Source: Coniochaeta sp. PMI_546 (taxonomy: Eukaryota > Ascomycota > Sordariomycetes > Coniochaetales > Coniochaetaceae). From it: a stretch of 64,000 bases of DNA. The translations under genes and the position numbers were made by a program. This document shows positions 28,413 to 46,852 of this stretch, in pieces. The DNA is taken from NCBI GenBank assembly GCA_021432605.1, contig MU271159.1, positions 310,001 through 374,000 on the forward strand, written 5' to 3'. Numbering within the stretch: position 1 is the stretch's first letter; the number at the start of each line of letters is the position of its first letter. Under the pieces are notes generated by a model. It was not told the DNA's origin and searched no databases. It saw only the letters and a program-made list of their open reading frames with translations.

Positions 28413-30702
28413 ATGACCGGTCCCCTCAGCAAACGCCAGCAGGCGCGCAACGAGAAGGTCCTCCAAGATCTGGTGCAGACTGTCCCCGGAAACAATCTCT
28501 GTGCCGATTGCGGTGCGAGGAATCCAGGTGAGCTTCGACTGTGCCGTGCTCGAATTCTAGCTCAGTACTGACGCGTCGTTGATTCTCTGCTAGCTTGGGC
28601 ATCATGGAGTGTACGTCGTCCGCACAACCCAATCCGACACACTTCGGCTGTGTGATCGTTCGACAACCGCCTGCCAACTCGGGATACACAATACGCGCGG
28701 ACAACGGCTAACGAGCGATGTGCAATAGTTGGGCATATTTCTGTGCATGCGGTGCGCCACCATCCACCGCAAACTGGGCACCCATATATCCAAAGTCAAA
28801 TCCTTGAGTATGGATAGCTGGTCAAACGAACAAGTAGAGGTATGCGCCTCTCGAGAGTTTCTTGCTCTTTCTTCCTTGACCACCTGCTAACGTTGCGCCT
28901 CCCAGAACATGAAGAAAGTCGGCAATATCTCCTCGAACAAGACCTACAACCCGCAGAACAAGAGGCCACCCGTGCCTATCGACGCAGACGAGGCTGATAC
29001 GGCCATGGAGCGGTTTATCCGGGCGAAGTACATGAACAATCCCTTAGCCTCCACACGACGGCCCAACACAGGGAGCACCGAGTCCGACGAGACGCCGCCT
29101 CCCCTACCACCCAAGACGTTCAGCAGGTTCGGCTCCAGTTTGAGGTCCGCGTCTTCTATCTTCCCCTTAGGGTCAAAGGCCAAGAGAGAAAGGGACGCGG
29201 CGCGGAATACGCCTCCTGCGAGTCCACGTGACCACTCCAGCCACCGAAATAAGCCTTCACAGGTCTTTGGCGTCAGCGTCGGTCATGAAGAACCTGGGGA
29301 CGATCAAGAGAAGAAGCTATCTCAGCTCCGTGATATGGGATTTGCCGATGACCATCGGAACGCAATGGTGCTCAAGGGCGTCAATGGAAACCTCGAGAAG
29401 GCGATTGAGGCTTTGGTGCGGCTGGGAGAGGGCGACGGACGCACGATACCGTCTCTGACATCGCCTCGGGATAGTTCTCTGGGAGCTACACGGTCTCTGA
29501 CACCAGCGAAAAGCTCGTCAATGGGCACGACGCGGCCGCCAGCTGCCTCGACGAATCCGTTTGACATGCTCGACATGCCGCCGCCGGCACAACCTCAGTC
29601 GTCTCAGTCAACCGGAACCCTCCAAAATAAGAATCCCTACCTGTCCAGCAACCCCTTTGGGATGCCCGCGCAGCAGACCTCGGTGGCTCTGGACCAAGCT
29701 TTCCAGAACATGTCTCTTGCACCGTCACAGCCCCTATTTCCGCACCATACAGGAGGCGTACCACAGCAAGGGAACGTCCAGCAGGCATTGTACCAACAGC
29801 AGTCGATACCCCCACCCATTCCGGCAATGCAGCAGAGCTACGGCTCCGAAATGTTTAGTAGTAATCAGATGAGCCCACTGCCGGCTCAGCAGACGGGCTA
29901 CAATCCGTTCTTCGCAAACCAGCAACCGCAGCAGAGTCTGACGGTGAACACAGCGAGCCTGCCAGGAGGCTACGGGAACAACCCGTTCACCCGGTCCCCG
30001 ACGCGGATCCAGTCGCCCACGCTGACCCAGATCCCGGAGCAGGTACAGCAGAACTTTTACAACCCTGTACCGCAGCCAGCACAACAGCCGGAATGGTACG
30101 CTCAACCGCGGCAGCAAATCTACCAGCAGCAAGTATATCAGCAGCCGCAGTCACCGCCACAGCAGCAACAAGGTTTCCAGCAGCAGAGCTACCAGCAGCC
30201 GCAGCCGCTTCAGCAGCAGAATACCAACAATCCCTTTGCCAGTCCGGTGCAGTATCCGCAGCCCACCGGCCAGCCTCGGCCGGACAAGGCATCGATCATG
30301 GCGCTGTACAACTATCCGCAGTCGACTCCCCAGAGCCAGCAGCAGCAGCAGCAACCTCAGGATCAGCAACAGCAGCAACAATACCAACAGCAATCCCAGC
30401 CACAGCTGCAGCAACAGCAACAAGCCCCGCCGCAGGCACTAAGTGCCTTCGACCAGATGTTCGGCCAGTCATACACGACACAAACCAGCCAGCAGCAACA
30501 AGCCGCCGCCACCACCCCGGCTGCTGCTGCCCCCGCCAGCTCGGTGCCGGCGAGCAACAACCCTTTCCTCGCCAGTCCGAGCGCATCGAACGTCGGCAAG
30601 TCGAGTAAGAGCAGGGACAGCATGATGGCCTTCGGGATGGAGTGGTCGAACGGGCGCCACAGCCCGGATGCGTTTGCTAGCCTGAGCGCCAGGCACGGGT
30701 GA
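28413..30702 (+). CDS. ArfGAP with UBA domain and Gln-rich tail (Gts1-like)
   Basis: Four exons, 28413-28527, 28594-28610 (17 nt), 28729-28839 and 28906-30702, give 679 aa. The ArfGAP zinc finger is C-x2-C-x16-C-x2-C (Cys30, Cys33, Cys50, Cys53), followed by the arginine-finger region [21 protein letters not shown] domain lies near residues 215-260 ([20 protein letters not shown]). The rest is rich in Gln, Pro and Asn-Pro-Phe motifs (NPF near [14 protein letters not shown]), with Gln runs coded by CAG/CAA repeats at about 30340-30430. Such proteins stimulate GTP hydrolysis on Arf in Golgi and endocytic trafficking; NPF motifs bind EH-domain proteins. Yeast Gts1 has the same ArfGAP-UBA-polyQ order. 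Confidence 0.93.
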
Positions 30703-31393: not shown

Positions 31394-32580
31394 TCACTTC
31401 GGCTCACTCTCATTCAGCCACTTATACACCACCCTCGCGTCCTTACCCCTGTACCGGCCGTCCGCAATCGCCTCCCCAAAGGCCCCCAGCGTCGGCTCCG
31501 CCAGCACCGTCCTGGCGCCCACCGCCTCGGCCAACCTCTTTCCCATGCCCAGCACCTTGGCGCAAAGCTCGATGCGGAACCCGCCCTCGTACCCGCGGCT
31601 GCTGGGCACGTTCTCCTGCACGCCCGGGACGGGATTGCTCTTGCTGGTCACCCAGCACTGCCCGCCGCTGGCATTGATGACGTCCGTCAGCAAGGCCGGG
31701 TCCAGCCCGGCCTTGACGCCGATGTTGAGCGCCTCCGACGCCGCCAGGGAGGTGATGGCGCTCAGGTAGTTGTTGATGATCTTGAAGGCGGTTCCGGCCC
31801 CCACGTCGCCGCAGAGGAAGACGCCCTGGGGCGAGCCCATGTGGTCCAGGTAGGACTTTACGGTGGGGAAGAGGCGGTCGGATGCCGCGGGCGGGCAGCC
31901 CACCATGAAGGTCAGGGTGCCGGCCTGGGCGCCCATGGGACCGCCCGAGACGGGGGCGTCGACGAAGGTGAGCTTGTCGGCGGCGGACAGCGGGGTCGAC
32001 TGCGTTGCCTTGGCTACCGAGAGGATGGTGTCGGTCTCGATGGTGCCGCACTCCATTATGAGCTTGTGCTCTGTGTTGCCGTCTTTGGCTGCCGCCTCTG
32101 CGCCGGCGAGGATGCCCGTTTCTGGGTCCAGGTAGACGGACTTTACGACTTCGGAGCCGGGGAGCATGGTGATTACTGTGTTCTAGGTTGGTTGGGAAGA
32201 TACAGTCATCAGCTTCTTCATTCTCGTTGTATGCCCTTGTGTGTGTGAGAGAGAGATTGCACTGGGGAGCTGTTACTTACCGCTGCCTTGGCCGCCTCGA
32301 AGCCATTGCTGACAATCTTAACCGGTCCCTGGCCTTCTGTCTCCCTTACGAAACGACCTAGTGCCTCCTTGCTCACGTCGCAGACGAGCAGCGTCTTTTC
32401 CTTGCCAAGGCCGGCGCGGAGGTTCTTTGCCATGGGGTAGCCCATGACTCCGATGCCTGAAGAGAAAAACGAGGTATCAGCTCATCTTGTCCTGATGTTC
32501 TGCGCTTCTGTCGCTCCTGTCGACCCCTTGGTCTCTTGCATACCTATGAAGGCGACAGTGTCTGCTGGTGAGGACGACAT
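31394..32580 (-). CDS. Beta-hydroxyacid dehydrogenase (3-hydroxyisobutyrate dehydrogenase family), copy A
   Basis: Three exons on the minus strand, 32580-32544, 32456-32281 and 32182-31394, give 333 aa. The N-terminal Rossmann motif is FIGIGVMGYPMAKNL; the substrate-binding signature is DAPVSGGPMGAQAGTLTFMV; the catalytic Lys lies in GTAFKIINNYLSA. This family oxidises beta-hydroxyacids with NAD(P), for example 3-hydroxyisobutyrate, tartronate semialdehyde or 2-(hydroxymethyl)glutarate. No clear mitochondrial presequence is present, unlike the valine-pathway enzyme, so a cytosolic cluster-specific role is plausible. Its second intron lies directly before NTVITMLPGSEVVKSVYLD, the same place and phase as the intron in copy B (45782-46852). 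Its promoter has three CCCCGC sites. Confidence 0.92.
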
Positions 32581-33179
32581 TATGTCGGTGGTCGGGTACT
32601 GGACTGAGAGGCCTTCTACCCTTTGGGAGTCTTCCTCTTTTCTGTCAAATGCCCCTGACACAGGTGGGTATAAGTGACCTCACGATTCAAAGTTGATTAC
32701 AGACAGATACCGGATCTTGGTTCTGAATCTCTTCTTTAGCATGGTATTCATGTAAGTCTTCCTCTCCCCTCTCCGGGGTTGTATATATTTTCCCCGCAGC
32801 GTGCCATGTTCCGTGTAAGCCGTTGCCTGACCTTAATTGTGAGTGCATCCACGGCGATCACCCCGCGTTTTGGGGGTGGGGGAGGGGATGTCTAGATGAT
32901 CTTTAACCATGCGGGGGAGAGACACGGTGCGGGCCGGGTGTATAGTCCTTCGGAATAGGAGCCTGAAGTGTGATTCAGATGCAATAATGTCCTCCCTGCC
33001 TATGGTGAGAGTTCAACACATTCGAGAGGGACTATAGACATGATGAGAGACTTAAAGCCCATGAACGATATCTGCTTGGTCACGGTAGGCACAGATATGC
33101 AGGGCTCAGCAAGACGGTGTATTTACGTAGACATCAACAATAAGAGACCTTCACTTCGTTCCGCACCATCGTAGCAGCC
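32581..33179 (-). promoter_or_regulatory. Promoter of dehydrogenase A with three CCCCGC sites
   Basis: CCCCGC occurs at 32792-32797 (TTTTCCCCGCAG), 32861-32866 (ATCACCCCGCGT) and, on the other strand, 32911-32916 (CATGCGGGGGA). These lie about 212, 281 and 331 bp before the ATG. The region also contains the 3' flank of lactonase A. Confidence 0.6.
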
Positions 33180-34268
33180 CTACAGTGTCCCCGGCCAGAA
33201 CCGATGCCTGTTCTTCGCCCTCCACTCCCCGTCATGCGCAACCACAACCTCGACCTCAACCTCGTCTCCGCCCTCGCCGCCCTCCTCCAACCTCTTCTGT
33301 CTCGCAAACTCCCCGATGCGATCCAGCGTCTGCCGCGCCACGCCAGTGTGCACATGCACGCTCCGCGTCCCGCCCCTTCCGTCATCATACATAGCAAAGC
33401 CCTTCTCGCCCCGCAAGATACGCGGATCGTGACAGCAGTCTCCACCCAGGTAAACGTACCTCTTCGGCCCCACGCGCGCCAGCACGTTGACGTGGCCGTA
33501 CAGATGGCCCGGGCTGTCAATCACATACAAGCTCCCATCACCAAACAGATCCAGCGCCGCCGGAAACCCCCCAAGAGGCTTCCAGACCCACCCCGACGCC
33601 GCAGGCGGCAGCAGCCCTCGCGCCTCCGACGGCGCGGGAGTGTGTCGGGGCTCCCGGTACGTGCCGTCGCCTCCTCCTCCTCCTCCCTCAGGTCTGGCCA
33701 CGGGGGGCAGCTCGACGGCGCGCGAGGCCGGGATCTCGTCGTCGTTGAAGATGTCGGCCGGGTAGAGGGGTCCGGCCCCGTGGCGCAGCATGTCGAGCGT
33801 GCCCGACCCCACGACGAAGGCGGCCGAGGCGAAGTCGGAGGGGGTCCCGACGTGGTCCCAGTGGACGTGGCTGAGGATGACCATGTCTACGTCCGTGGAC
33901 GGCTCGAGGAGAGGTTGGGACTTCCTGGTGGTATCGCTGGTTTCTTTGGCGCCCTGGCGGAGGCTGGCGGCGCAGTCGGGATCGGTGATGATGGGCTGGC
34001 GGTCTGCGATGTGCGCTTCCTGAGCTGGCGCGTAGCCCGAGAGGTCACGTTTGACGCCCAGGTCGAAGACGATGTTTGTCACGTTGCTGTGCGGACGTGC
34101 GGGTGGTGACGATGGGTGCTGGATGAGGAAGGCGAGCGAGGGCACTGTTGCGCGCTTCTCTGGGTCGGCATCGGTGACGAATAGGCTCTCGGGGAGGGTG
34201 AGATGGCCGGCGTCGAGGGCCGACATCGTCACGTAGACGGGCGTCCTGCTGTTTGTTGCGGATGCCAT
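33180..34268 (-). CDS. Metallo-beta-lactamase-fold lactonase (AHL-lactonase-like), copy A
   Basis: A single exon of 362 aa. The zinc motif HxHxDH is present as SHVHWDHVG (His134, His136, Asp138, His139). Later metal ligands are supplied by DSPGHLYGHVN, GGDCCHDPRIL and AHDGEW. The N-terminal VTMSALDAGHLTLPESLF and VPSLAFLIQHP are shared with copy B at 44215-45331. A Gly- and Pro-rich insertion (near residues 195-225, containing GGGGGGDG) is absent from copy B. The closest described enzymes of this fold hydrolyse lactones, including N-acyl homoserine lactones, and fungal relatives open benzoxazolinone rings. The substrate here is unknown. No signal peptide is seen, so it is probably cytosolic. 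Confidence 0.9.
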   Translation of the reverse strand: MASATNSRTPVYVTMSALDAGHLTLPESLFVTDADPEKRATVPSLAFLIQHPSSPPARPHSNVTNIVFDLGVKRDLSGYAPAQEAHIADRQPIITDPDCAASLRQGAKETSDTTRKSQPLLEPSTDVDMVILSHVHWDHVGTPSDFASAAFVVGSGTLDMLRHGAGPLYPADIFNDDEIPASRAVELPPVARPEGGGGGGDGTYREPRHTPAPSEARGLLPPAASGWVWKPLGGFPAALDLFGDGSLYVIDSPGHLYGHVNVLARVGPKRYVYLGGDCCHDPRILRGEKGFAMYDDGRGGTRSVHVHTGVARQTLDRIGEFARQKRLEEGGEGGDEVEVEVVVAHDGEWRAKNRHRFWPGTL

Positions 34269-34727
34269 TGCGCTGTTGTAGATCTGAAGTCAAAGAGATG
34301 TTACCTTGACAAGTGGTAGGAAAGAATGCTTCAGCTGGCCTGGGTGTATGTCTGATGTTCGACTATACCACAGAGAATTGTAATTACTGCTCTGGATTGC
34401 CATCCCTGTGCCATCCCGTCTTTCTATTCTTCGAGATCCCAACAAACTCAACTACCGTGAATTATGTGAGGGGGTGTCAAATCGACATATAGTTGTGTGC
34501 GGGGGAATGAGGAGACATTGAGGGGAGATGCTTACAGCCAAGGATGGGGAGAAGTGAGTCTCGAAGGCGACAGACTTGGTGTAGATTTGGAGAAAACGAG
34601 CAGCCACGCAGGCGACCCTTGATATGAAAGAAACTTGGTCATTGACTTGAAGACTCCCGTCCAACTGAGTAACAGATGGTCTGTGATCGAGAATAGCAGT
34701 TCAGTCATACAAGATCGACAGACATTG
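34269..34727. promoter_or_regulatory. Divergent promoter of lactonase A and alcohol dehydrogenase
   Basis: One site, GTGCGGGGGAATG, places GCGGGG at 34499-34504, about 230 bp from each start codon. Its position midway between two divergent genes suits joint control. Confidence 0.55.
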
Positions 34728-35882
34728 ATGATGACGACACCCACAACCGCCAGGGATCTCCCTCCCCAAATGAAGGCCCAATTCCTCGAAGCATTCAACA
34801 AGCCCTACGCCCTCCGCACCGTCCCCCTGCCCACCCCATCAGATCCCAACGACGTGCTCATCAAGGTCGACGCCGCCTCCTACTGCCACACCGACGCCGT
34901 CCTAGCCGCGGGCGCCATGCCGCCCAACCCCCCGAGCTTCCCGCACGTAGGCTGCCACGAGTTCGCCGGCACCGTCGTGGCCCTCGCCCCAAGCTCGTCC
35001 TCTTCCTGGCGCGTGGGCGACCGCGTGGGCGTGCCGGGCCGCTCCTTCCACCCCTGCGGATCCTGCTTCGAGTGCGCCGGGGAACCCTCGCCCGAGGACC
35101 CCGATGCAGATCCCCCGGGCTACTCGGTCTACTGCCCGCGCTCGCTGAACAACGGCATCAGCGGGCCCGGGGGGTTCAGGGAGTACGCCGTCGTGGACGC
35201 GCGGCAGCTGGCGCCCATCCCGGACGGGATGTCGGCCGTCGACACGGCGGTGCTGATGTGTGCGGGTGTCACGGTCTATGCCGCGCTGAAGCGGTGCCGC
35301 CTGCAACCCGGGCGGCGGGTTGGTATCATGGGGTGTGGGGGTGGTCTCGGCCATCTGGGGCTGCAGTTCGCGGTCAAGATGGGGTTTAAGGTGGTTGGTG
35401 TGGATGCCGTGGATGCGCCTCTCCGGCTTGCGAGGGATGTTGCCGATGCATCTGTGAGGATAGTAGATGCGAGGGCTGAGCAGGCTAAGGACGTGGTGGC
35501 CCAAATCGGTGAGGAGGACGGCAAGACGGATGCCGGGGACAAGGGCCTTGACGCTGTCATTATCCTGCCCGAGAGCCAGAAGGCTTTCGATTATGGTGTA
35601 GGCTTGTTGAGGAATCATGGCAAATGTGTCGTGGTGTCGTTCCCAGCCGAGGGGTTTCACATATCTGCGCGGGACGTGGTATTCCGGGACATCTCGATAG
35701 TGGGCAGTCTCGTGGGGAGCAACAAGCTCTTGAGAGAGATGTTACAGTTTGCTGCACAGCACGATGTCAAGGCCAAGATCAAGACATTCCCGTTATCAGG
35801 GCTGAATGACCTGGTAAGGGAGTACAACAAGGGAGAAGGCGGGAAACTTGTCATAGACATGTCCCTTCCTGATAGTGTCTAG
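34728..35882 (+). CDS. Zinc-dependent alcohol dehydrogenase (MDR family, ADH1-like)
   Basis: A single exon. The ATG at 34728 (MMTTPTTARDLPPQMKAQ) gives 384 aa; an in-frame ATG at 34635 would add 31 residues of non-conserved sequence. Catalytic-zinc residues are in AASYCHTDAV and HVGCHEFAGTV. The structural-zinc Cys group is CGSCFEC plus a later YC, but its loop is enlarged by a Pro/Asp-rich insertion (SPEDPDADPPGYS). The NAD-binding turn is MGCGGGLGHLGLQFAVKMG. It should oxidise an alcohol to an aldehyde or ketone, or the reverse. It is divergent from lactonase A and ends only 33 bp from the end of the converging regulator gene. Confidence 0.92.
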   Translation: MMTTPTTARDLPPQMKAQFLEAFNKPYALRTVPLPTPSDPNDVLIKVDAASYCHTDAVLAAGAMPPNPPSFPHVGCHEFAGTVVALAPSSSSSWRVGDRVGVPGRSFHPCGSCFECAGEPSPEDPDADPPGYSVYCPRSLNNGISGPGGFREYAVVDARQLAPIPDGMSAVDTAVLMCAGVTVYAALKRCRLQPGRRVGIMGCGGGLGHLGLQFAVKMGFKVVGVDAVDAPLRLARDVADASVRIVDARAEQAKDVVAQIGEEDGKTDAGDKGLDAVIILPESQKAFDYGVGLLRNHGKCVVVSFPAEGFHISARDVVFRDISIVGSLVGSNKLLREMLQFAAQHDVKAKIKTFPLSGLNDLVREYNKGEGGKLVIDMSLPDSV

Positions 35883-35915
35883 AGGCACGACAGCGCCAAT
35901 GCTACATACAGCACG

Positions 35916-38826
35916 CTAGCTAGCTTCCAACATGTCTGCATAGATGTTCAACGAGCTTCCAATCACGTCTACGATAGCCCACGTCTGCGCGCCCCTGAAG
36001 ATGGTGGCCCACACCCTCAGCACCCCTGCACTAAGATGTTTTGCTGTCTCTGGCGACTCGAGCGACTTGCCCGGTGGCACAGCGAACTCAGTCTCGTCCA
36101 GCATCGTCATGACCAGGGACAGAATCTTTCGTTCATCTTCGCTGATGGGTGGCTCGATGTGCAGCGGCTCAGACTTGGACACCGTCTCCAGCCACTTGCT
36201 GAGCAGAAGAGCGCACTCAAGAGAACATAGAGAGTGTTGTATTGACCAGATGAACGCCTGGGTTTTCGATACAAGCCGAACTCCGATCTTGATAGGAATG
36301 CTCAATGCGTGTGCCGAATGGAGGAGCGCTCGCACGAGCTTTGGCGTCCGCTTGATAGCGGGCATCTCGCGTAGCGCGTGAGCAATCTGTAGAGGGTCTC
36401 TTGTGCCGAGCGCGCGTCCCGGGCCCGTGTCCATGTTGAGCCGGATGTAGGCTAGGCGCAGGAGAGCGGTAGCGTTGAAGGCCACTGGGCCATTTGGATC
36501 CGAGGGATCGATCGAGGACTCTGGGCTCCGGTTCCAGCCCATCTGCCACCTGCGGAGGGCTTGCTCGAGTGGCGCGGCGTCTTCGTCTGTCAAGTCATCC
36601 CCGTCGACTCGGCACCGGATCGTCTGCCGGACGAGAAAGATGTGCTGTATGATTGCATGTATCAAGACATAGTTCCCCAAGGCTGAATGACAAGCCGGTG
36701 TTGTCTCACTGTCATTGGAAAACAGCCAGCGCAGGGCATCTTGGAATCGAGAGGGTGGTTCGGCTCTTGCCCTTGCCTCACGCCATCTGGCCTCCGAGTC
36801 GGCCTTGAACTCGGCAGTGCTACACGGAAGTGGCATGTGAATCTCCGAGTTGAGCAGGAGTGGCGGGATGTCGTAGACGATGGAGTGCAGGTTAAAGAAG
36901 CAGAGGACGATGTACTTCGTCCTCATCACCGACTCATACCGTATCCAGTCTTCCCACGTCGCTGTCTCTCCCTGCCAAGCCCCCATGCGCAGACCATCGT
37001 CTCGGACAATGCTTGCGAGGATGCTCTGGATGGCCAGGGCCTCCCGAAGAATCGCCTTATGCTTCGCCCACGTCGCCATCGCCATGAGAATAAGCAAGGC
37101 CTGCGCGGACTGCATCAAGTCCTCTTTCGGCTGGACACTTGCCATCGCGCCGCCGCTTCCGGGGTCAGATGGCAACCCAAGCGGCCCGTTGACTGTATGC
37201 CCAAGATTCGAGCCCCGCCGGTCCTGCACAGCCGGACTGCTCACGGCGGATATCACCGACAGAGTCGAATAGTCGGGCTCGGCGTCACGCTGCTGTAGGG
37301 CGACCCTCGCATCCCTTCTCCTTATCCGCTCGGTGGCAATTGCCCTGGCAGCATGAAACAGCTCCACGCCCTTTTCGGCCTCGAAACAGTATTGGGCACC
37401 AACAGCGGCCATGGCCAGGAGGAGCTCAACGGATGAGTCCTCGACAGTCATTGATTGAACGTGCAGGAACGGCAGGTGCTCCTGGAAGCCATCGACATAA
37501 GCACGAATGTACCGGGCAAGCGACATTCTGGTGGGGAGCTGGAAGTGCTCTAGCAGAACGTTATCGAACTTTGCAATCTCGCGAATGATGAATTGCCTGT
37601 CTTCAGATGATACGTGCCATACCCTTCTGGTCTGAATCGGTCGCCGGGATGGCTCGCTGTCGTGATGCTGGGATTCGGTGGGCTCGTGTTCGTCCGGGTG
37701 AAGAGATGGCAACCTTGAGCCGAATCGCGAAAATGAGGTCTGCTCTTCGACCACGTTCTGTGCTTGCGCAAGTCCGGGCAGACGCGAAGCGCTCGGATTG
37801 TAGACACCCTCACCGGGGTTGGTAAACGCATTGAACGGAAAGAATGACATGGGCTGCTCAGCGGGCATGAACGACGCAAACTGATGAGTTGATAACGGCT
37901 CCGACTCGAGGAACGCGGCGAAGCTATCGAAAGAGACGTCCAAGTAGCCAAGATGTGAAGACATGCCAGAATCCATGACGCCCATGGACGGGTTCACGGT
38001 TGAGGACATAGCCTGTGTGTGAGTAAGATCAGCCAGAGGCTGTGGAGGAGCTTCATTCGCTGCAGCATAAGCCGGCGTAGTCGGCGCGGGGGCCGCGTTC
38101 TGAAAAGCCGACTGCTCAGCAGCCAGAGACAAAGCTTCCAAGGGTGTACGGTAGCCCTGATTCGGATGGGCACGATCAGTGAAGTGTTGGTTTTCAACTG
38201 AAGGCTGCGGCCTGAAGGCAACACTGGGTGATACGGACAAGCCGTACTGTGAAAGAGGGCCGGTCTGAGCAGGGACAGGAGAGGAGATCACTCCATGGTT
38301 CTCTGTATCATCACCGTTCGCAGACGATGCTCTCGTCCGCTTCGCCGCCCTTTCCGACCGCCTGGAGGGGCCCGTGTCCGAGAGACGCGGTGTAGGCAAC
38401 TGAGACTGAACCTCGCCTCTCTCCTTGTTGTGCGAAAGGCGTTCATGTCTGATCAACAGATCGCTATGATGGAGCGCAGGTCCATGATCAGCACAATGTC
38501 TACTCAGGTTCTATGGAGAGTGCTCGGTACCTTCTGGTGAATCTAGACTGGCACTGTTGACAGGAGAACGGCCTCTCCTGTGTGTCTGTAAGAAGTAGAT
38601 TGGTATGTCAGATCTGCTCCAGCGATAGAATATATACGAAGGGAGAGGGGAGCGATGCTAGGCAGGGTTGGGGTAACATGAAGACGATCAACCACGTACG
38701 AGTGCGGTCGTGCCGCTGCAGATGTTCGAGACGGGAAAACTGCCTCTGACAGCGAGGACATTCGAAGCGCCTGGGCTTCTTGAGCGGCCTGACGACAACT
38801 TCATTGGAGACCTCACTGGACGGCAT
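35916..38826 (-). CDS. C2H2 zinc-finger transcription factor with fungal-specific (MHR) domain
   Basis: Three exons on the minus strand, 38826-38700, 38585-38531 and 38463-35916, give 909 aa. Two adjacent fingers lie at about residues 20-75. Finger 1 is C-x2-C-x12-H-x3-H with helix SRLEHLQRH; finger 2 is C-x2-C-x12-H-x4-H with helix TRSDLLIRH. Splicing of the 55-nt second exon is required to complete finger 2. A Ser/Pro/Gln-rich linker follows, then a fungal transcription-factor homology region from about residue 300 (EHFQLPTRMSLARYIRAYVD). The finger helices resemble those of Mig1/CreA, which read GCGGGG, and that hexamer recurs in every cluster promoter including its own. Its position inside the cluster suggests it is the pathway regulator; this is inference. 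Confidence 0.9.
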
Positions 38827-39144
38827 GATCGGGGGCGGGGATATCAAAAAGGGCAGTCGACATGTCTGGGTTAGGACAACCTGGATGTTACTTTGCCAAA
38901 AGAGGGGGATGCACGGCAACATGGAACAAAATGCGGGGATAAAGCACGTTCCACTACTGTGGTACAGGTGCATGACAGGGGTCCCTCAGAGTTTAACAAA
39001 TTAACAGGAGCTCGAGAGATGGTAGAGCATCGACTGCATTGTGCTGTAAAATACAGAAGAGAGGTCTAATCGCTAGACTCTAGGCCGCCTCTAGCCTTGT
39101 CCACCCTAATTTTCCTTCTTTCTCATACCCATCGTGCTGTCCGC
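38827..39144 (-). promoter_or_regulatory. Promoter of the C2H2 regulator with two GCGGGG sites
   Basis: GCGGGG is at 38835-38840 (GGGGGCGGGGAT, just before the ATG) and 38933-38938 (AATGCGGGGATA). The spacer also holds the 3' flank of the CMD gene and the palindrome CTAGACTCTAG at 39073-39083. Confidence 0.55.
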
Positions 39145-39603
39145 TTATGCCTTCGCCGACTTGTTACCCAGCTCCCTCGGCTTCTCGCCCTTCTCAGCCA
39201 TCTCGTTCAGCACCTTCTCGGCCACCTTCATGGCGTCAACACCAGCAGGAACGCCGCAGTAGGTGGTGCAGTGCAGAATCGCCTCCCGGATCTCCAACTC
39301 GGTGAGGCCGTTGTTGCGGGCCCCTCGGATGTGCACGGCCAGCTCGGGTGCACGGTTGAGGGCCATGAGCATGCCGATGTTGAGCAGACTGCGCTGCTTC
39401 CTCTCCAGACCCGGCCGCGTCCACGCGTAGCCCCAGCACCACTCCGTCACGAGCTCCTGGCCAGGGCGCGCGAACTCGGACGACCCGTTGGCGAGTGCCC
39501 GGTCGACGTATTCGTCGCCCACTACGCTGCGGCGCACGGCAAGACCTGCCTCAAAGAGACCCTTGTGCAACTCGTCGAACTGGGGGTCTGTGCTGCTGGC
39601 CAT
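39145..39603 (-). CDS. Carboxymuconolactone decarboxylase-family protein, single domain (CMD-A)
   Basis: A single exon of 152 aa starting [17 protein letters not shown] at 39603. The CMD/AhpD fold is shown by [55 protein letters not shown] and [15 protein letters not shown]. This matches the gamma-carboxymuconolactone decarboxylase branch, whose best-known member removes CO2 in the beta-ketoadipate pathway; related proteins act as alkylhydroperoxidases. The longer ORF reaching 39690 adds only a non-conserved N-terminus. It is divergent from the MFS gene. Confidence 0.9.
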
Positions 39604-40735
39604 CTTGGGCGAGATAGGATGAAAGTTGCCGGGCAAGGTCTGGACGAGATGTGACTTTGTGATAACGTGGTCGAGATAGTAGGCGGGCAAGTAAGTCTTG
39701 GAAGTATTTTGAGGGAAGATACGGATATTCTAAAAGATATTCAGCAATGAGAAGTTATAGAAAAGCCATCCCCAGCCTCGTTTAATATTCTAGAGACGTT
39801 ATTTACAGACAGACAAAGCGAAAATTGTATAGAAGTAACCGTTCCAAGGGCGCGGGGGGGAAATAACCATAGCGTTGTCTGATTCTTCAGAGACAAACCT
39901 TTCCCCTCATCAAGAGGGGGCACGATGGGATGGTGATCGACAGCCATCTCCCCACCCCCTCAGTGAATCCTTTGGGACAATCTGATATGTCTTACTATGT
40001 ACTATGGTGCTAGGTGGCACACTGGCTCGTCGCGGACTGCTTCTAGAATCTGAGTGACCAAGACCACATCGAAGATAATCAGTTGTTGCGGTGCATGTAC
40101 AAGATACGAAAGCATCGACTTCGTTCACCATGGAGTCCTTCGACTTGGTTCAGATGGATGATTAGGTGAACAAAGAACACATACCCTAGTCTAGACGGTG
40201 AGCAGATTCAGGTTCCTTTTGCTCCCCAGATCCACTTTTCCCCGGATTTGCTTTCCCCGCTGACGACCCGCTTCCCCAGGTTCTGCTCAAGGGCAATATG
40301 CGCAGCGATGGGAATTGGACGGCATAGTCTACCTGGTCTTGAGACTATTTGTCGTAAGGTCTGACACAGCCATCTACCTAAAGATTCAACATGGGCTCCT
40401 TGTCTCGAACCACTCCGAGGTGAGCCCGAATCGTGACGAACACGGTGAGCACACACTAACCCCCACAACCTCATTCCCCCGCATTGCGGGGATGGCACGG
40501 GACTCCATGCTTACACTACTCTACCCTACCCTGCTAGACGTATGAACCACTCAGCACAGCGCAAATACGGCTCCATTCGACATAGACAGATCCTTTCTAT
40601 CCCAAGTATATCACAGGTCTGACCCTAGCAGCATGCTGGGCACAACTCATATTTCCGTTCTCCTCTTCCCTATATCCATCCTCCTCGTCCCCAATCCATC
40701 AACTATCTAGGCCAGACACATTCGACCATAACAAC
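39604..40735. promoter_or_regulatory. Divergent CMD-A / MFS promoter with four GCGGGG-type sites
   Basis: Sites are at 39852-39857 (GCGCGGGGGGG), 40255-40260 (CTTTCCCCGCTG) and a perfect inverted pair at 40477-40491. The 1.1-kb length is large for this cluster and no gene is seen inside it. Confidence 0.55.
40477..40491. promoter_or_regulatory. 15-bp perfect palindrome of the cluster motif
   Basis: The sequence is CCCCGCATTGCGGGG, two CCCCGCA half-sites in inverted orientation around one central T. It lies about 245 bp before the MFS start codon and could bind two regulator molecules. Confidence 0.7.
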
Positions 40736-42550
40736 ATGTCTTCCGAAGTCTCGGCAGAGAAAGTCGGCGCCGACTTCCACGAGTATGCCCCGTCGGAAAG
40801 CGGCATTGTCGAGGATGCAGAACGCCGTGCCAGGGAGAAGGCTCTAGTCCGCAAGCTGGACCTCTACATTGCACCCGTCATGATGCTCCTCCAGCTCATC
40901 AGCTACCTGGATCGTGGAAACATCGGCTTCGCGGCCACTCAGGGCATGACCACGGATATTCATCTCAAGGGGACCAATCTCAACGTATGCCTCTCCTTTT
41001 CCAGTCCCCCTTTGACCTCTACCATTCTGGCCATATGCTCATGTCGAACCGCAGACTGCCGTTTCCGTCTTCTACATCTTTTACATTCTCGCAGAGTTTC
41101 CCAGCGCCATCTTCGTCAAACGCATTCAGTTCAACAGGTTCCTCCCAGCCATCACCTTCTGCTGGGGTGTCGTCTGTCTCGGCACTGGTTTCATCCATAA
41201 CTTTGGCGCGCTCGTTGCTACTCGCGTCTTGCTTGGGTTCTTCGAAGGCTGCTTATTTGCTGCCATGACCATATTCTTGTGCAACTGGTACAAGCGAGAG
41301 GAGCTGGCGGTTCGTGTAGCCTTCTTGTTTGGTGAGTATTTTGATCATAAAAGGCATCTCTTCTACTAAGTATCGGATATCTGACGCTCTTATAGTCGCT
41401 TCTGCACTTTCCGGTGCATTCGGAGGTCTCTTAGCTTGGGCTATGCTAAATATGGACGGCGTAGCAGGTTATGCTGGATGGAGATGGTGAGTGCAGACAC
41501 TTTTTGAACTCAGAACTTTGAAACTGAACAAAGATAATTTGATGCCTAACATGACCTCTAGGCTCTACATCATCGAAGGTATCATCACCGTCGTCTGGGC
41601 CGCGTGCTGCGTCATTCTCGTCCCCAAGAACTACGAGACGGCATACTTCCTCAACGACGAAGACAAGGCCCTCATGCGGATCCGCGCCGAGGAGATGGAG
41701 GCCTACAGCGGCGGAAGCGGCCACTACACAAAGAAAGAAATCAAAGACGCCGCAAAGGATGTCAAGACCTGGGCCCATTCCGTCATACAAATCGCTGTCG
41801 TGACTATTCTCTACGGTCAGTTTCCTAAGTATAACCCCACCGCCCGAGTTGATGACAATACTGATGCCCAAAGCTCAGGTTTCGGTACATTCTTGCCAAT
41901 CATCATCAAGGACGGCTTCCACTTCTCCCTCGTCCAGTCCCAGTACCTCGTCATCCCCGTCAACCTGTGGGGGGCCATCGTCTATACCGTGGGCGCGCTC
42001 TTGTCCGACAAGTACCAGAAGCGCTTCCTGCCGCTGGTCGTCTGCGCCCCGTTCGGGATCGCCGGTTACGCGATACTGCTCTGCGACGTGTCACCGGGAG
42101 TGCGGTACTTTGCGACCTATTTGATCGCTACGGCTTGCTACCTTTGCACCGGTGGTAATATGTGAGTTTTGCCTCATTTCACCCTGTAGACTACTGCAAA
42201 CTATGTTGACGAGTACTAATGTCTGATTTTTCCTCTCTAACAGTGCTTGGCTCTCTGGGAACTGTGCACCCGACGGCAAGCGGGCCGGAAGTGTCGGTAT
42301 TCTCCTGACAATGACCAACATCGGCGGCGTGGTCTCGGGCCAGATCTACCAGGGCACACAGGCTCCCAAGTTTACCCTCGGTCATGCCTGGTCTCTAGGC
42401 TGTCTTGCGTTTGCCTGGATTGGATGGTGGATCGTGAGGTCGCTGTATATTCGCCGCAATGCTGAGAAGGAGAAGGCGCTGGTTGAGGGGGTCGTTGTGC
42501 CTCGGGAGGAGTATACCGATCGCGCTCCGGACTTCAAGTACCATATTTAA
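40736..42550 (+). CDS. MFS carboxylate transporter of the DAL5 / TNA1 (anion:cation symporter) family
   Basis: Six exons, 40736-40984, 41055-41331, 41396-41486, 41562-41815, 41879-42161 and 42244-42550, give 486 aa. The N-terminus carries ALVRKLDLYIAPVMMLLQL and ISYLDRGNIGFAATQGM, diagnostic of this family. Further family blocks are FYILAEFPSAIFVKR, ATRVLLGFFEGCLF, WRWLYIIEGIITVVWA and AWLSGNCAPDGKRAGSVG. Yeast members carry allantoate, nicotinate, pantothenate and biotin, so an organic anion is the likely substrate. Central position between two CMD genes suggests it imports the compound that the cluster degrades. Splice sites were all frame-checked. Confidence 0.93.
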
Positions 42551-42650
42551 GCCGAGATTTATGTAATTTATAGTAAATCATTTGAGTTAATTGATTTTGT
42601 GATAGGACTTCTTGGTTCCTACTGCCGAGTTCTTTATCTACAGTGACTTT

Positions 42651-42685
42651 TCTAGACTCTACTAACTTGAATACTGGAGTCTAGA
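42651..42685. repeat. Inverted repeat TCTAGACTC / GAGTCTAGA in convergent spacer
   Basis: Nine-base perfect arms (42651-42659 and 42677-42685) flank a 17-nt loop, between the ends of the MFS and CMD-B genes. It could act as a 3'-end element; the same TCTAGACTC core recurs near 31071 and, with one difference, near 39072. Confidence 0.65.
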
Positions 42686-42757
42686 TGATTGAACAAATGT
42701 GTTTGTTGCTTTTTGAAGGATATATAATCGCTGATAGTGGCTAAGGAGTATTTATCA

Positions 42758-43623
42758 CTAGGAGGTCGAAGCCCCAATCATCAACTCTTCTATGATAGGC
42801 GCCGAAACATGAGCCGTGTGTATGCTCAGAAGTGTGGCAATCTCCAGCACTTCGAGTATTTCTTGCGGAGTGGCCCCATAGCCAAGAGCATTCTTCATAT
42901 GCAGTTTCAAACCTGGGACATATAGGTGCGTAGCAGCGCAGTCGAATGCACAATATACCAACTCTTTCATCTGTCCAGGTTGTTAGCCTCTTCATACCTA
43001 CAAAACGGTGGATTTCCTCGTCCTGAATATACCTTTGGCTCTAGGGCTCCTTTGCCTGGATTCTTGCTTCCCTTGACGTCCTTCGCCCAAGGGAGGCCAG
43101 AAAACTCGAGGTAAGCCTCGAAGAACTCGGGATCGAGCCTGAGAAAGTCTTCCCAGAAAGTATGCCAGTAGCCCCGCCTCTCGGTGAACTCTTTCTTGAG
43201 CCTCTCCTGGTTGTCATCAAAAGGCTTGGTGATCTCGTCTGTGTACCTGCCTTCTTCCCTGAGCACCTCGACGAGCAGAGGCACCCCGATGTTGCATGCG
43301 TGTATGCCCAAGGTGCTAGACAGCTCAATGACCTCGAGAACCTCGTCTACAGTGGCGCCCTCCTTTGCCGCGGCGGTGACGTGGGTGCGAATGCCCGGTG
43401 GGTAGAGGTGCGTGGCCGCGCAATCTACTGCGAGACCGATGAGGGCCTGGTCCTTCCGGGACAGGTGCGATTTCTGGCGTGGCACCGCGGCTAGTGACAG
43501 GCTTGCGGAGAAGAAGGCAGGGTCTGTCCGGAGGAGGGCAGCCCAGCCCTCGTGGAGAGCGTCGGCCCCTAGTTGGGCGGCGAAGCGCTGCTTGAGTTGT
43601 GTTTGGTCTTGCTCTGAAGCCAT
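42758..43623 (-). CDS. Tandem carboxymuconolactone decarboxylase-family protein (CMD-B, two domains)
   Basis: Two exons on the minus strand, 43623-43033 and 42970-42758, give 267 aa starting MASEQDQTQLKQRF. Domain 1 contains LIGLAVDCAATHLYPPGIRT and VDEVLEVIELSSTLGIHACN; domain 2 contains YCAFDCAATHLYVPGLKLH and PQEILEVLEIATLLSIHTAH. The two halves clearly repeat each other, showing an internal duplication of the AhpD/CMD fold. The usual redox CxxC of AhpD is absent; each half keeps a lone Cys in DCAATHLY. The function could be decarboxylase, hydrolase or peroxidase-like. It is not a close copy of CMD-A. The 62-nt intron has GTATAT donor and CAG acceptor. A short in-frame extension to 43644 is possible. 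Confidence 0.88.
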
Positions 43624-44214
43624 GATTAGAGCGCGTTTTGTCAATGTGGTTAGCCTTTACTGTCGGAGAGACTGCTGAATTAGAAGTCCACGAGACTGTA
43701 ATCCTGTAACTGAAAATAATAAAATTGTTAACATCAATCGAACACATATCACGGGCTTCACATTGCCGAGATGGCTTCCCCGCACGGGGACTAGGTGACC
43801 CCCACACTGCATGAGCTCGCATACTGTACGTGTAAACCTAAGTCTGTAATTTCTCACCCCTTCCCCGCATCGGATGATGTGAGAAACGACTGGGACACAT
43901 CAGGTGGGGAAGTTGGAAAAGACTCGAGAGGGGGTCCCCGGAATGGGCTGTTGGGAGGTTCTAAGGCCTTCAGAGGTCTGCCCCGTCCCCAGATCCATGT
44001 AGAGAATGATGTCGGAGAGTCGGTAACCGAGAGCAAGGAGTAGATTTGACCTGGATACAGATCCGGGTGCAAAGAGAGGCTAGATCACATACCAGGGCAA
44101 CAGAGACTTGGCAAGGAAACAAAGTTATACCAGAGTCTAAGACGTGGTCAAATAAACCACTACTTGTCGCACTCTATTCGTATCTAACAGAAAAACACGT
44201 AACTCAACACATCT
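43624..44214 (-). promoter_or_regulatory. CMD-B promoter with two CCCCGC sites
   Basis: CCCCGC is at 43778-43783 (CTTCCCCGCACGGGG, with an inverted CGGGG next to it) and 43863-43868 (CCTTCCCCGCATCGG), about 155 and 240 bp before the start. No gene is seen in the spacer. Confidence 0.6.
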
Positions 44215-45331
44215 CTAGGACGATGCTCCAAAGAAGCGGTGCTTGTTCCTTGGGTCGTTCTCCCACTCCACGTCATGAGCGAAGATAACTTCGACTCCCT
44301 GCCTCTCCAGGCCCCGGATGCGCTCGATTGTCTCCTCTGCTCCAGCACGGTCGGCATGGATGCAGCATACGTGGCCATGAACGTCGTGCCACTCGCCGAT
44401 CTCCCTCTCCCTGCGAAGGATTCGCCGGTCGTGGCACGCATCGCCCGCAAGGTAGATCCATTTCCTCCCACTACTCCCACTATCCTCATCCACATTGTCC
44501 ACATGCGCGAGAAGGTTGATATGACCAGGGAGATGGCCTGGTGCATTGACAATGTAAAGACTGCCATCCTGAAAAATGTCCAACACAGAAGGCAGATCGC
44601 CGAGTGACTGCCACTGGCTGGAGAAGTGGCCAGAAGACGGCAGCCCGGGAGCAGCATTGCCGTGTGTTGCAAAGACTTTATTGGCTTTGCTGTCAGAAAG
44701 CTCAATAGTTCTAGAAATGTCAAGTAAATCCGCCTCAAAATGTGAGTGATTGCCTCGGAGCTCGGCGGACTTGCCCTCGAGCACGTCGAGGGAGCCGTGG
44801 CCGACCACGAAGGTGCTGCGAGCGAAGTCTCGCGGCTCGCCAACATGATCCCAATGCACCTGCAAATGGATGTCAAAAATAGGCGATAGACTACGAAGCA
44901 TCAAAATTACGTACATGTGAGTAGATGACATAGTCGATATCGTCCGGTGTCAGGCCCCCAGCTCTGAGGCTTTTGACCACATCTGGATCCGTGTTATAAG
45001 GCTCACGCGTGGTGAGGTGTTTTTGTATGGGCACTGGATAGCGCTTGACATCTCTGCGCAAGCCCAGATCGAAGACTATGCGTGTGATGCGGCCTGTGAC
45101 AGGGCAGGCGTGCTGAACCAAGAAGCATAGCGATGGCACAGCGTTCCGCGCGCCCGGCGATGAAGGGCTCACGAACTGCTCCTCGGGAAGGGAGAAGTGA
45201 CCAGCTGAGAGAGCATGGACAGTGACTGTGGCCGGCGATGTCTTAGACAAGCTCTCTCCTGCGATAAAGGAGGTGGTGCCAGGCCGCCGTGTCGGTGTCG
45301 AAGTCGGAGGCTGCGAGTATAGGGTCGCCAT
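44215..45331 (-). CDS. Metallo-beta-lactamase-fold lactonase, copy B
   Basis: Two exons on the minus strand. The first ends at 44915 and the second is 44859-44215; with the ATG at 45331 the protein has 354 aa. The intron splits the zinc motif, giving SHVHWDHVG (His139, His141, Asp143, His144) only after splicing. Other ligands are NAPGHLPGHINLLAHV, LAGDACHDRRIL and AHDVEWEND. It resembles copy A (33180-34268) throughout (AVPSLCFLVQHA, IVFDLGLRRDVKRY) but lacks the glycine-rich insertion. Upstream in-frame ATGs at 45400 and 45502 would lengthen the N-terminus by 23 or 57 residues. Likely activity is hydrolysis of a lactone or related cyclic ester or amide. Confidence 0.88.
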
Positions 45332-45781
45332 AGATCTATGTACTCTACCTTCTCCTCGATCAAGTGTTGAATCGGCACCCAACACCGGCTTACCTGCCAT
45401 TGAACAGAAGTAAAGAGTAAAATAATTGCCCTCATTAGCACCCCTTTGGCGTCTCTCCCCACTTGTCGAAGAGTAGTAGATGTTCTCCGCATGAGAGACC
45501 AACCCCCACGATTGACCTAAGCTACCTCTTTCCCCGCATGACCATCACCCCCAACGACTTGACAACGACCTGATGGCTATAGCATCTGCATAGAAGTCAA
45601 AGGCTAACCTATGTCAATTTTATCTCAATGGTTCAAACGAGCATACAGTTATACCCTGTACATACTTATTCCAAGAACGGAGCCTTAACACGACCGTATC
45701 AGCCCATAGCTGTCTCCTTACCTCACCCTAGACAGACAACAAGTCGCACCTAGGAGTTGGTTAACGCGACGGGTCTGCATC
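45332..45781. promoter_or_regulatory. Divergent promoter of lactonase B and dehydrogenase B
   Basis: One site, CTCTTTCCCCGCATGACC, has CCCCGC at 45532-45537, about 200 and 245 bp from the two start codons, and mirrors the single shared site between lactonase A and the alcohol dehydrogenase. Confidence 0.58.
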
Positions 45782-46852
45782 ATGACACAGACCGACACCA
45801 GAGCTCAGCCTGTGTCAGTGGGCTTTATTGGCCTAGGGCTCATGGGGAAGCCTATGGTCGTCAACCTCGCCGAGAAACTGCCGGCTGGATCGCGCATACA
45901 CGTTCATGACGTGGTAACTGCCGCTGTGGACGATCTCTGCACCTCGTACCCGGACAGCATTGTTGGGTGCGGCAGCGCCAAAGAAGTGACTGAGAAATCG
46001 GTACGTGTGTCAAGACAGGAGGAAAACGGGAGATATGGTCGAACAGGGCCAGAGTGTAGACAATCTGTCTAACGTTTCCCACAGGATGTCATCCTCACCA
46101 TGCTGCCCGAAGGCAGACACGTCAAGTCGGTGTACCTCGATCCAGATACCGGAATCCTCCCCGGTCTCTTATCACCATCACCCAGGACCGGCAAGCTCGT
46201 GATCGACTCGTCAACAATAGACACAGCCACCAGCCTCCACGTCAAAGACCAACTCGCCGCCTCGTCACCAGATACCGCCTTCTACGACGCCCCAGTGAGC
46301 GGCGGCGTCCTCGGCGCCGTCAAGGGCACCATCGCCTTCTTCCTCGGCGCCAGCCAGCACGACGCTAACCTACCACGCCTTCTGCCGCTCCTGCAGATGA
46401 TGGGCGGCAAGGTGATCCCCTGCGGGGGGCCCAGCCTCGGCCTGGCGGCCAAGCTCTCCAACAACTACCTCTCCGGCATCATCACCATCGCCTGCTCCGA
46501 GGCCATGGACATGGGCATGCGGGCCGGCATCGACGCCGACGTGCTGGCCAGCGTGTTCGCGGCCGGCACGGCCCAGAACGCCATCTGCGACACCTTCAAC
46601 CCCGTGCCGCGCGTCTGCCCGGCCGCGCCGTCCTCCAACGGCTATCAGGGTGGGTTCCGGGTGCAGTTGATGCGCAAGGACATGGGCCTGGCTATCGACA
46701 TGGCGCGGCGCGTCGGGTCGCGCAACGTCCTGGGCGCGAGCGGGTTTGGGGTCTACTCGGCTGCGAGCGAGGCTTCGGACTGCCGGGATCTGGACTCGCG
46801 GGTCGTGTTTCGGTATATTGGAGGTAATGAGGACTGGAAGAAACGGGAGTAG
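45782..46852 (+). CDS. Beta-hydroxyacid dehydrogenase (3-hydroxyisobutyrate dehydrogenase family), copy B
   Basis: Two exons, 45782-46000 and 46085-46852, give 328 aa. Motifs are GFIGLGLMGKPMVVNLAEKL (NAD-binding), DAPVSGGVLGAVKGTIAFFL (substrate signature) and the catalytic Lys in GLAAKLSNNYLSG. After the intron the protein reads DVILTMLPEGRHVKSVYLD, closely matching the corresponding segment of copy A, and the intron is in the same place and phase. It is divergent from lactonase B and marks the right edge of the cluster. The two copies differ enough that they may act on different hydroxyacids. Confidence 0.92.

What the first reader, a model, noticed from the sequence alone, without database searches (positions are those of the whole stretch)
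31394..46852. Nine-gene putative lactone/organic-acid catabolic cluster with mirror-image gene order
The order of enzyme classes is dehydrogenase A, lactonase A, (ADH, regulator), CMD-A, carboxylate transporter, CMD-B, lactonase B, dehydrogenase B: three enzyme classes occur twice, mirrored about the transporter. Seen directly: family motifs of all nine genes. Known: MBL-fold enzymes open lactones, HIBDH-family enzymes oxidise hydroxyacids, CMD proteins decarboxylate or act as hydroperoxidases, DAL5-type transporters carry organic anions. Inferred: a dedicated pathway that imports and breaks down a lactone or its acid, using paired enzymes for two isomers or two successive lactone steps. No biosynthetic core enzyme and no ring-cleaving oxygenase is present. 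I know of no described fungal cluster with this exact content; Fusarium benzoxazolinone clusters share only the MBL theme.
Basis: partly seen in the sequence, partly recalled or inferred. Interest (0 to 1): 0.85.

Follow-up and report, generated by a model that had tools for sequence, protein, structure and literature searches.

The report
Fungal acid-breakdown cluster mirrored in bacteria
Nine neighbouring fungal genes share one promoter signal and look like a self-regulated pathway for breaking down an unknown organic acid or lactone, built from nearly the same kinds of enzyme as a rare bacterial operon.

Summary
All nine genes are intact at the stated coordinates. The mirrored order is real but superficial: MBL and CMD copies keep the same strand, CMD-A and CMD-B are different kinds of protein, and the two dehydrogenases are no closer to each other than to a third genomic copy.

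Two findings support one dedicated pathway. First, TGCGGGG lies in all six gaps that hold promoters, covering all nine genes, and in neither convergent gap: 9 copies against a shuffle mean of 0.33, 0 of 1000 shuffles as high. The cluster's regulator has the layout of HxnR, whose predicted site is GHGGGG. Second, 5 of 18 bacterial loci examined carry the same kit: two HIBDH-family dehydrogenases, PcaC-like CMD, tandem CMD, lactonase-like MBL and acid-type transporter. The fungal tandem CMD is 46-57% identical to theirs and joins them with 100/100 support.

Best reading: a self-regulated catabolic cluster that imports an organic acid or lactone, then opens, oxidises and decarboxylates it. Substrate, expression and binding are untested; fungal relatives could not be searched. 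Ten paper searches listed no description of it.

The parts
31394..32580 (-). HIBDH-A, 333 aa, 3 exons (31394-32182, 32281-32456, 32544-32580)
   Evidence: gene model; NAD_binding_2/11; HIBADH model 219 bits, under cut-off 291.6
33180..34268 (-). MBL-A, 362 aa, 1 exon, HVHWDH
   Evidence: weak AttM/4-pyridoxolactonase similarity
34728..35882 (+). Zn-dependent alcohol dehydrogenase, 384 aa
   Evidence: best NCBIfam AdhP 166 bits, under cut-off
35916..38826 (-). Regulator, 909 aa, two C2H2 fingers + PF04082, 3 exons (35916-38463, 38531-38585, 38700-38826)
39145..39603 (-). CMD-A, PcaC-like, 152 aa, 1 exon
   Evidence: TIGR02425 136.7 bits, under cut-off
40736..42550 (+). MFS transporter, 486 aa, 6 exons
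   Evidence: MFS_1 139.6 bits; D-galactonate transporter family 182.7 bits; PDB 6e9n
42758..43623 (-). CMD-B, tandem CMD, 267 aa, 2 exons (42758-42970, 43033-43623)
   Evidence: PDB 2q0t E 2.3e-75
44215..45331 (-). MBL-B, 353 aa, 2 exons (44215-44859, 44915-45331), HVHWDH
   Evidence: PDB N-acyl homoserine lactonases
45782..46852 (+). HIBDH-B, 328 aa, 2 exons (45782-46000, 46085-46852)
   Evidence: PDB 2i9p
32792..32798 (-). TGCGGGG site, HIBDH-A promoter
32910..32916 (+). TGCGGGG site, HIBDH-A promoter
34498..34504 (+). TGCGGGG site, shared MBL-A / ADH promoter gap
38932..38938 (+). TGCGGGG site, promoter of the regulator itself
40477..40491 (.). Palindrome CCCCGCATTGCGGGG (two TGCGGGG sites), shared CMD-A / MFS promoter gap
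   Evidence: CCCCGCA-N0-4-TGCGGGG at two places in 33.5 Mb
43778..43784 (-). TGCGGGG site, CMD-B promoter
43863..43869 (-). TGCGGGG site, CMD-B promoter
45532..45538 (-). TGCGGGG site, shared MBL-B / HIBDH-B promoter gap

Best explanation
A self-regulated fungal catabolic gene cluster. Its C2H2 + PF04082 regulator binds (A)TGCGGGG(A) in its own promoter and in those of the eight other genes and switches them on together (site enrichment shown; binding and induction inferred). The MFS protein imports an organic anion; MBL enzymes hydrolyse a lactone or similar ring ester; HIBDH-family enzymes oxidise the hydroxy acids formed; the two different CMD proteins decarboxylate or rearrange oxo or unsaturated-lactone acids, as PcaC does; the Zn-ADH adjusts an alcohol or aldehyde; a small acid is left for central metabolism (all inferred from families). 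It works like a rare proteobacterial operon with the same kit, but was assembled mostly from other branches of the same families, around one enzyme, the tandem CMD, whose ancestry is shared with that operon.
For: Nine intact enzymes or regulators with motifs kept. TGCGGGG in 6 of 6 promoter gaps and 0 of 2 convergent gaps; 9 copies vs shuffle mean 0.33, 0 of 1000; TCCCCGCA 6 seen vs 0.10 expected from 901 genome copies; no TGCGGGG in the two outer flanks. GHGGGG, the predicted site of HxnR, which has the same domain layout, is the enriched form: GCGGGG 13 vs 2.3, GAGGGG 9 vs 3.6, GTGGGG 7 vs 2.2, GGGGGG 2 vs 1.8. Same kit in 5 of 18 loci, annotated so in Acidiphilium and Sodalis. CMD-B groups with the operon proteins 100/100. 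Transporter slot filled by unrelated acid-type carriers.
Against: No expression, binding or substrate data. The fungal HIBDHs form their own group (100/99, with long-branch warning); the fungal MBLs find no operon MBL at E 1e-3 in L023-L026; CMD-A groups with the fungus's own C21 paralogue (94/82): so apart from CMD-B the kit matches at family level only. No cupin, NIPSNAP or ALDH is in the fungal cluster. 12 of 18 loci with tandem-CMD-related genes lack the kit and 1 has part of it. GCGGGG is also a CreA-type site (recalled). After correction for scanning the genome in windows, the whole-interval count of TCCCCGCA has p about 0.005, weaker than the gap-only figure.
Confidence: 0.6

Rival explanations
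1. The promoter element is a carbon-catabolite repressor (CreA/Mig1-type) site: the genes are co-repressed by sugar like many catabolic genes, and the local regulator binds something else. The cluster is still catabolic.
For: GCGGGG fits the CreA consensus SYGGRG (recalled); GCGGGG and GTGGGG are enriched.
Against: Other SYGGRG forms are not enriched: CCGGGG 3 vs 2.5, CTGGGG 4 vs 2.4, and the four R=A forms total 2 against about 12.6 expected. GAGGGG, not a CreA form, is enriched (p 0.012). A palindromic pair and a site before the regulator itself suit a pathway regulator.
Confidence: 0.2
2. A detoxification cluster that opens a toxic plant or bacterial lactone or lactam (as FDB1 does with benzoxazolinone, or BxdA in bacteria), rather than a growth pathway.
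For: Two MBLs of lactonase type. FDB1 MBL1 and BxdA are MBL-type enzymes in inducible clusters (passages).
Against: FDB1 content (amidases, dienelactone hydrolase, salicylate hydroxylase, Zn2Cys6) differs. Two dehydrogenases, two CMDs and an acid-type carrier point to full breakdown.
Confidence: 0.15
3. The nine genes are neighbours by chance and do not form one pathway.
For: The families are common in fungi (recalled); function is untested.
Against: One element in 6 of 6 promoter gaps and the same kit in five bacterial loci. By these scans, which give lower bounds, 2 of 4 CMD-family genes and 2 of 3 HIBDH matches in the genome lie here.
Confidence: 0.04
4. An inverted duplication produced the mirror and the pairs.
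For: Order of classes is palindromic.
Against: Strands do not mirror for MBL and CMD; CMDs not alike; HIBDH-A/B no closer than either is to the C1 copy.
Confidence: 0.01

Closest known systems
Proteobacterial operon with tandem CMD (Acidiphilium cryptum pACRY02, Sodalis praecaptivus pHS1, Paraburkholderia sp. PGU19, Salipiger pallidus, Billgrantia zhangzhouensis); no description found in the paper searches
   Same: Two HIBDHs, PcaC-like CMD, tandem CMD, lactonase-like MBL (two in Sodalis), one more dehydrogenase, acid-type transporter; CMD-B 46-57% identical
   Different: Operon has cupin, NIPSNAP, GntR regulator and ALDH or SDR; fungus has Zn-ADH, a C2H2 regulator and two MBLs; HIBDH, MBL and CMD-A come from other branches
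hxn nicotinate regulon of Aspergillus nidulans (PMC5746545, PMC8478523, PMC9304392; passages only)
   Same: Catabolic cluster with MFS proteins under a two-finger C2H2 + PF04082 regulator, predicted site GHGGGG in nearly all its promoters, divergent gene pairs
   Different: No nicotinate hydroxylase, flavin monooxygenases, cyclic imidase or amidase among the nine genes here
FDB1 benzoxazolinone cluster of Fusarium (PMC4726666, passages including its Table 2)
   Same: Inducible fungal cluster with an HxHxDH MBL, an MFS protein and a PF04082 regulator
   Different: FDB1 has amidases, dienelactone hydrolase, salicylate hydroxylase, NmrA, Zn2Cys6 regulator; no CMD or HIBDH in its table
Beta-ketoadipate pathway enzymes PcaC / PcaD
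   Same: CMD-A resembles PcaC; a decarboxylase beside a lactonase recalls PcaC + PcaD (pathway chemistry recalled)
   Different: CMD-A is under the PcaC cut-off; no ring-cleaving dioxygenase, cycloisomerase or alpha/beta enol-lactonase matched in the cluster

Membership tests
Co-regulated fungal catabolic gene cluster | Contiguous enzymes, transporter and pathway regulator | tested here: met
   families
Co-regulated fungal catabolic gene cluster | Shared promoter element in all member genes | tested here: met
   6 of 6 promoter gaps, 0 of 2 convergent gaps; 0 of 1000 shuffles
Co-regulated fungal catabolic gene cluster | Co-expression and growth on the substrate | not testable with these tools
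   no expression data
Proteobacterial tandem-CMD operon (as the same pathway) | HIBDH x2 + PcaC-like CMD + tandem CMD + MBL + transporter | tested here: met
Proteobacterial tandem-CMD operon (as the same pathway) | Cupin, NIPSNAP and ALDH/SDR members | tested here: not met
   none among the nine fungal genes
Proteobacterial tandem-CMD operon (as common descent) | CMD-B groups with operon CMD-Bs | tested here: met
   100/100; nested or sister unresolved, p-AU 0.073
Proteobacterial tandem-CMD operon (as common descent) | HIBDH, CMD-A and MBL group with operon members | tested here: not met
MBL-fold lactonase | HxHxDH plus later His/Asp/His metal ligands | tested here: met
   ligand set recalled
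MBL-fold lactonase | Scores over a characterised lactonase model | tested here: not met
   all NCBIfam lactonase models far under cut-off
PcaC (CMD-A) | Over the PcaC equivalog cut-off | tested here: not met
   136.7 vs 155.7 bits
3-hydroxyisobutyrate dehydrogenase | Over the HIBADH equivalog cut-off | tested here: not met
   219 and 228.1 vs 291.6 bits; family folds and catalytic lysine present
hxn nicotinate cluster | Nicotinate hydroxylase and hxn enzymes present | tested here: not met
   no such families among the nine (hxn content)
HxnR regulator family | Two C2H2 fingers + PF04082 | tested here: met
HxnR regulator family | Orthology to HxnR | not tested
   no fungal sequences held; the NLS string quoted in the paper is absent
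FDB1 cluster | Amidase, dienelactone hydrolase, salicylate hydroxylase, Zn2Cys6 | tested here: not met

The most novel reading that the evidence does not exclude
An undescribed catabolic route shared across kingdoms: the same multi-enzyme kit, marked by a tandem-CMD enzyme of unknown reaction, exists as a rare, often plasmid-borne operon in bacteria and was rebuilt in a fungus from other dehydrogenases and lactonases around a laterally shared tandem CMD, under a C2H2 regulator whose site stands before every gene.
Probability: 0.45. Interest if true: 0.75.

Novelty: new variant of a known kind. Interest (0 to 1): 0.6.

Why it matters
It turns a nine-gene guess into a testable regulon with a named regulator, a named DNA site and a bacterial counterpart. 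The tandem CMD has a solved relative (2q0t) that is labelled only as a putative decarboxylase subunit; the conserved kit gives such proteins a pathway context, and the fungus or the bacteria, whichever is easier to grow, can be used to find the substrate. It would also be a clear case of one catabolic route assembled separately in fungi and bacteria.

Tried and rejected
Inverted duplication: rejected on strands and identities. CMD as hydroperoxidase: disfavoured, no CxxC. FDB1 and hxn membership: not met. Capture of the whole operon by the fungus: not supported, since HIBDH, MBL and CMD-A have other relations. Recent transfer of CMD-B: no GC3 signal (0.668 against 0.675-0.699 in two flanking genes). 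A substrate from the literature: ten paper searches; three returned nothing and the titles and abstract starts listed by the rest described neither this cluster nor the operon; most listed papers were not opened. More operons in the two host families: operon-type HIBDH2 at E <= 1e-70 in 1 of 394 and 1 of 275 genomes, each the centre itself (only the best 5 or so, and 8, candidates were scored per genome). A structure of MBL-A was accepted but not finished at any poll, so no fold search was done.

Rows dropped: three long-branch tandem CMDs (L030, L031, L060; 41, 35 and 31% identical to the fungal protein) from the second CMD-B tree; with them in the fungal protein and the five operon proteins grouped at 97/92. 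L061 (partial match) was in neither tree. Six short rows were skipped in the CMD-A tree. The Paraburkholderia HIBDH1 and HIBDH2 were not put in the HIBDH tree. The Salipiger 'TctA/TctC' seeds were named by eye; TctC had no NCBIfam match at 1e-10.

The statement that TGCGGGG lies in all gaps was narrowed to the six promoter gaps after a recount.


Full report
WHAT WAS CHECKED. The window lies in a 33.5 Mb genome of 24 contigs, at C17:310001-374000; spliceosomal introns and the Fungal_trans domain mark it as fungal. Hand-built gene models give nine complete proteins from 31394 to 46852, all introns GT...AG, no internal stop. To the right lies a calpain gene (PF00648); to the left a long open frame without a Pfam match at 1e-5.

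THE MIRROR. The order of classes is palindromic, but 6 of 630 random orders of such a set are. Strands are mirrored only for HIBDH. CMD-A and CMD-B do not match by blastp (E 0.73); CMD-B is itself a tandem of two repeats 36% identical. HIBDH-A/B share 38%, and each shares 41-43% with a fragment of a third copy on C1. MBL-A/B are each other's best match in the genome. The pairs are old and of differing origin; no single duplication made them.

THE PROMOTER ELEMENT. Eight gaps separate the nine genes; six hold promoters and two are convergent. TGCGGGG stands in 6 of 6 promoter gaps and 0 of 2 convergent gaps, so each gene has a site in the gap before it. Of 2,675 7-mers seen in the six gaps, it is the most over-represented: 9 copies in 3,549 bp against 5 in the rest of the window. 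In 1000 dinucleotide-preserving shuffles of the gaps the mean was 0.33 and none reached 9 copies or 6 gaps; the best count of any 7-mer in 200 shuffles was 7. The longer TCCCCGCA is in 5 of the 6 gaps (6 copies). It occurs 901 times in the genome (reversed control 731), so 0.10 is expected in the gaps; over the whole 13.2 kb interval 0.36 is expected, and the scan-corrected p is about 0.005. The two outer flanks have no TGCGGGG, one has one GCGGGG. Between CMD-A and the transporter stands CCCCGCATTGCGGGG; palindromes of this kind occur at two places in the genome.

WHO BINDS IT. The in-cluster regulator has two C2H2 fingers and PF04082. HxnR, the regulator of the A. nidulans nicotinate cluster, has the same layout (PMC5746545, abstract and passages), and its predicted, not measured, site is GHGGGG (PMC8478523, passages). 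Here GCGGGG (13 vs 2.3 expected), GAGGGG (9 vs 3.6) and GTGGGG (7 vs 2.2) are enriched, and GGGGGG is not (2 vs 1.8). CreA sites (SYGGRG, recalled) include GCGGGG and GTGGGG, but the other CreA forms are not enriched. I therefore favour the cluster's own regulator, acting on itself too; CreA stays a live rival. Expectations come from the rest of the window, which is partly coding.

THE BACTERIAL COUNTERPART. A scan of bacterial and archaeal genomes with CMD-B confirmed four loci, and a plasmid search gave 33 records. Eighteen loci were examined with seed proteins at E 1e-8. Five hold the whole kit: Salipiger pallidus, Billgrantia zhangzhouensis, and plasmids of Acidiphilium cryptum, Sodalis praecaptivus and Paraburkholderia sp. 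PGU19. One (L056) holds part of it; twelve do not, some being short or cut by contig ends. [quoted passage not shown] Sodalis has two lactonase-family proteins. All 10 plasmid records with the operon's second HIBDH at E <= 1e-60 also hold the tandem CMD and the cupin within about 2.5 kb; 8 of the 10 are Paraburkholderia, so they are few independent cases, and 23 of the 33 records with a tandem-CMD match lack that HIBDH. The operon is rare: that HIBDH at E <= 1e-70 is in 1 of 394 and 1 of 275 genomes of the two chromosomal hosts' families, each the centre itself. At class level, CMD-B matches at E <= 1e-20 are in 10 of 385 genomes around Salipiger, and Acidiphilium-CMD-B matches at E <= 1e-25 in 3 of 369 around Billgrantia, two of them covering one repeat only.

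KINSHIP. Fungal CMD-B is 46-57% identical to the five operon proteins, 42-45% to nine other tandem CMDs and 31-41% to three long-branch ones. In the tree without those three, the fungal protein and the five operon proteins form one side of a 100/100 branch; with them, 97/92. Whether the fungal protein is nested among the five or sister to them is open (p-AU 0.073). CMD-A groups with the fungus's own C21 paralogue (94/82); its best matches are the locus with the partial kit (56%) and the Acidiphilium operon (53%). The HIBDHs group with the fungus's third copy (100/99, long-branch warning), and the fungal MBLs find no operon MBL at E 1e-3 in L023-L026. So the kit is the same but only one part shows close shared descent with the operon. 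The picture is of separate assembly around a laterally shared enzyme, not of operon capture. Direction and age of the sharing are unknown; CMD-B has an intron and native GC3.

HOW IT LIKELY WORKS. Shown: intact enzymes with catalytic motifs, one common promoter element, the same kit in bacteria, and carriers of acid-transporting families in the transporter slot, at family level only. Inferred: uptake of an organic anion; opening of a lactone by MBL; oxidation of hydroxy acids by two HIBDHs with different substrates; decarboxylation by CMD-A (PcaC acts on an unsaturated lactone acid; recalled) and a second, unknown CMD-B step; a redox step by ADH where bacteria have ALDH or SDR. The best PDB match of the operon's second HIBDH is 2-hydroxymethylglutarate dehydrogenase (3cky): a hint, no more, that hydroxymethyl acids are oxidised.

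LIMITS. No structure was obtained. The substrate is unknown. None of the ten paper searches listed a description of this cluster or of the operon; the library misses most subscription papers.

VERDICT. A real, co-regulated catabolic cluster, well beyond chance; the mirror is a red herring; the promoter element and the bacterial counterpart are the parts worth following.

Noticed in passing
G000 C7:469761-469774: The only other CCCCGCA/TGCGGGG palindrome in the genome; it could mark a distant member of the same regulon.
   Followed up: no
G000 C21:47249-60656: A PcaC-like CMD (C21:60417) lies about 10 kb from two MBL-type matches (C21:47249 and C21:51068); it is CMD-A's nearest relative in the tree. 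Possibly a second cluster.
   Followed up: partly
L029 543-16573 (Paraburkholderia sp. PGU19 plasmid): The operon here is longer: a second MFS, an MmgE/PrpD protein and a third HIBDH before it, and a PQQ-type dehydrogenase with a cytochrome-c-like frame after it. These may hint at the substrate.
   Followed up: partly
L056 12506-19902: Partial kit (CMD 56% to fungal CMD-A, HIBDHs, GntR, ALDH) beside ABC-transporter-like frames (by eye) and a tandem CMD about 5 kb away.
   Followed up: partly
L030 and L031: Other tandem CMDs sit near MmgE/PrpD genes as well (annotation), as in L029.
   Followed up: no
window 48121-52191: Calpain family protease gene with a long low-complexity tail, next to the cluster and without the promoter element upstream.
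   Followed up: no
window 28909-30702: Long open frame rich in Gln/Pro with no Pfam match at 1e-5.
   Followed up: no
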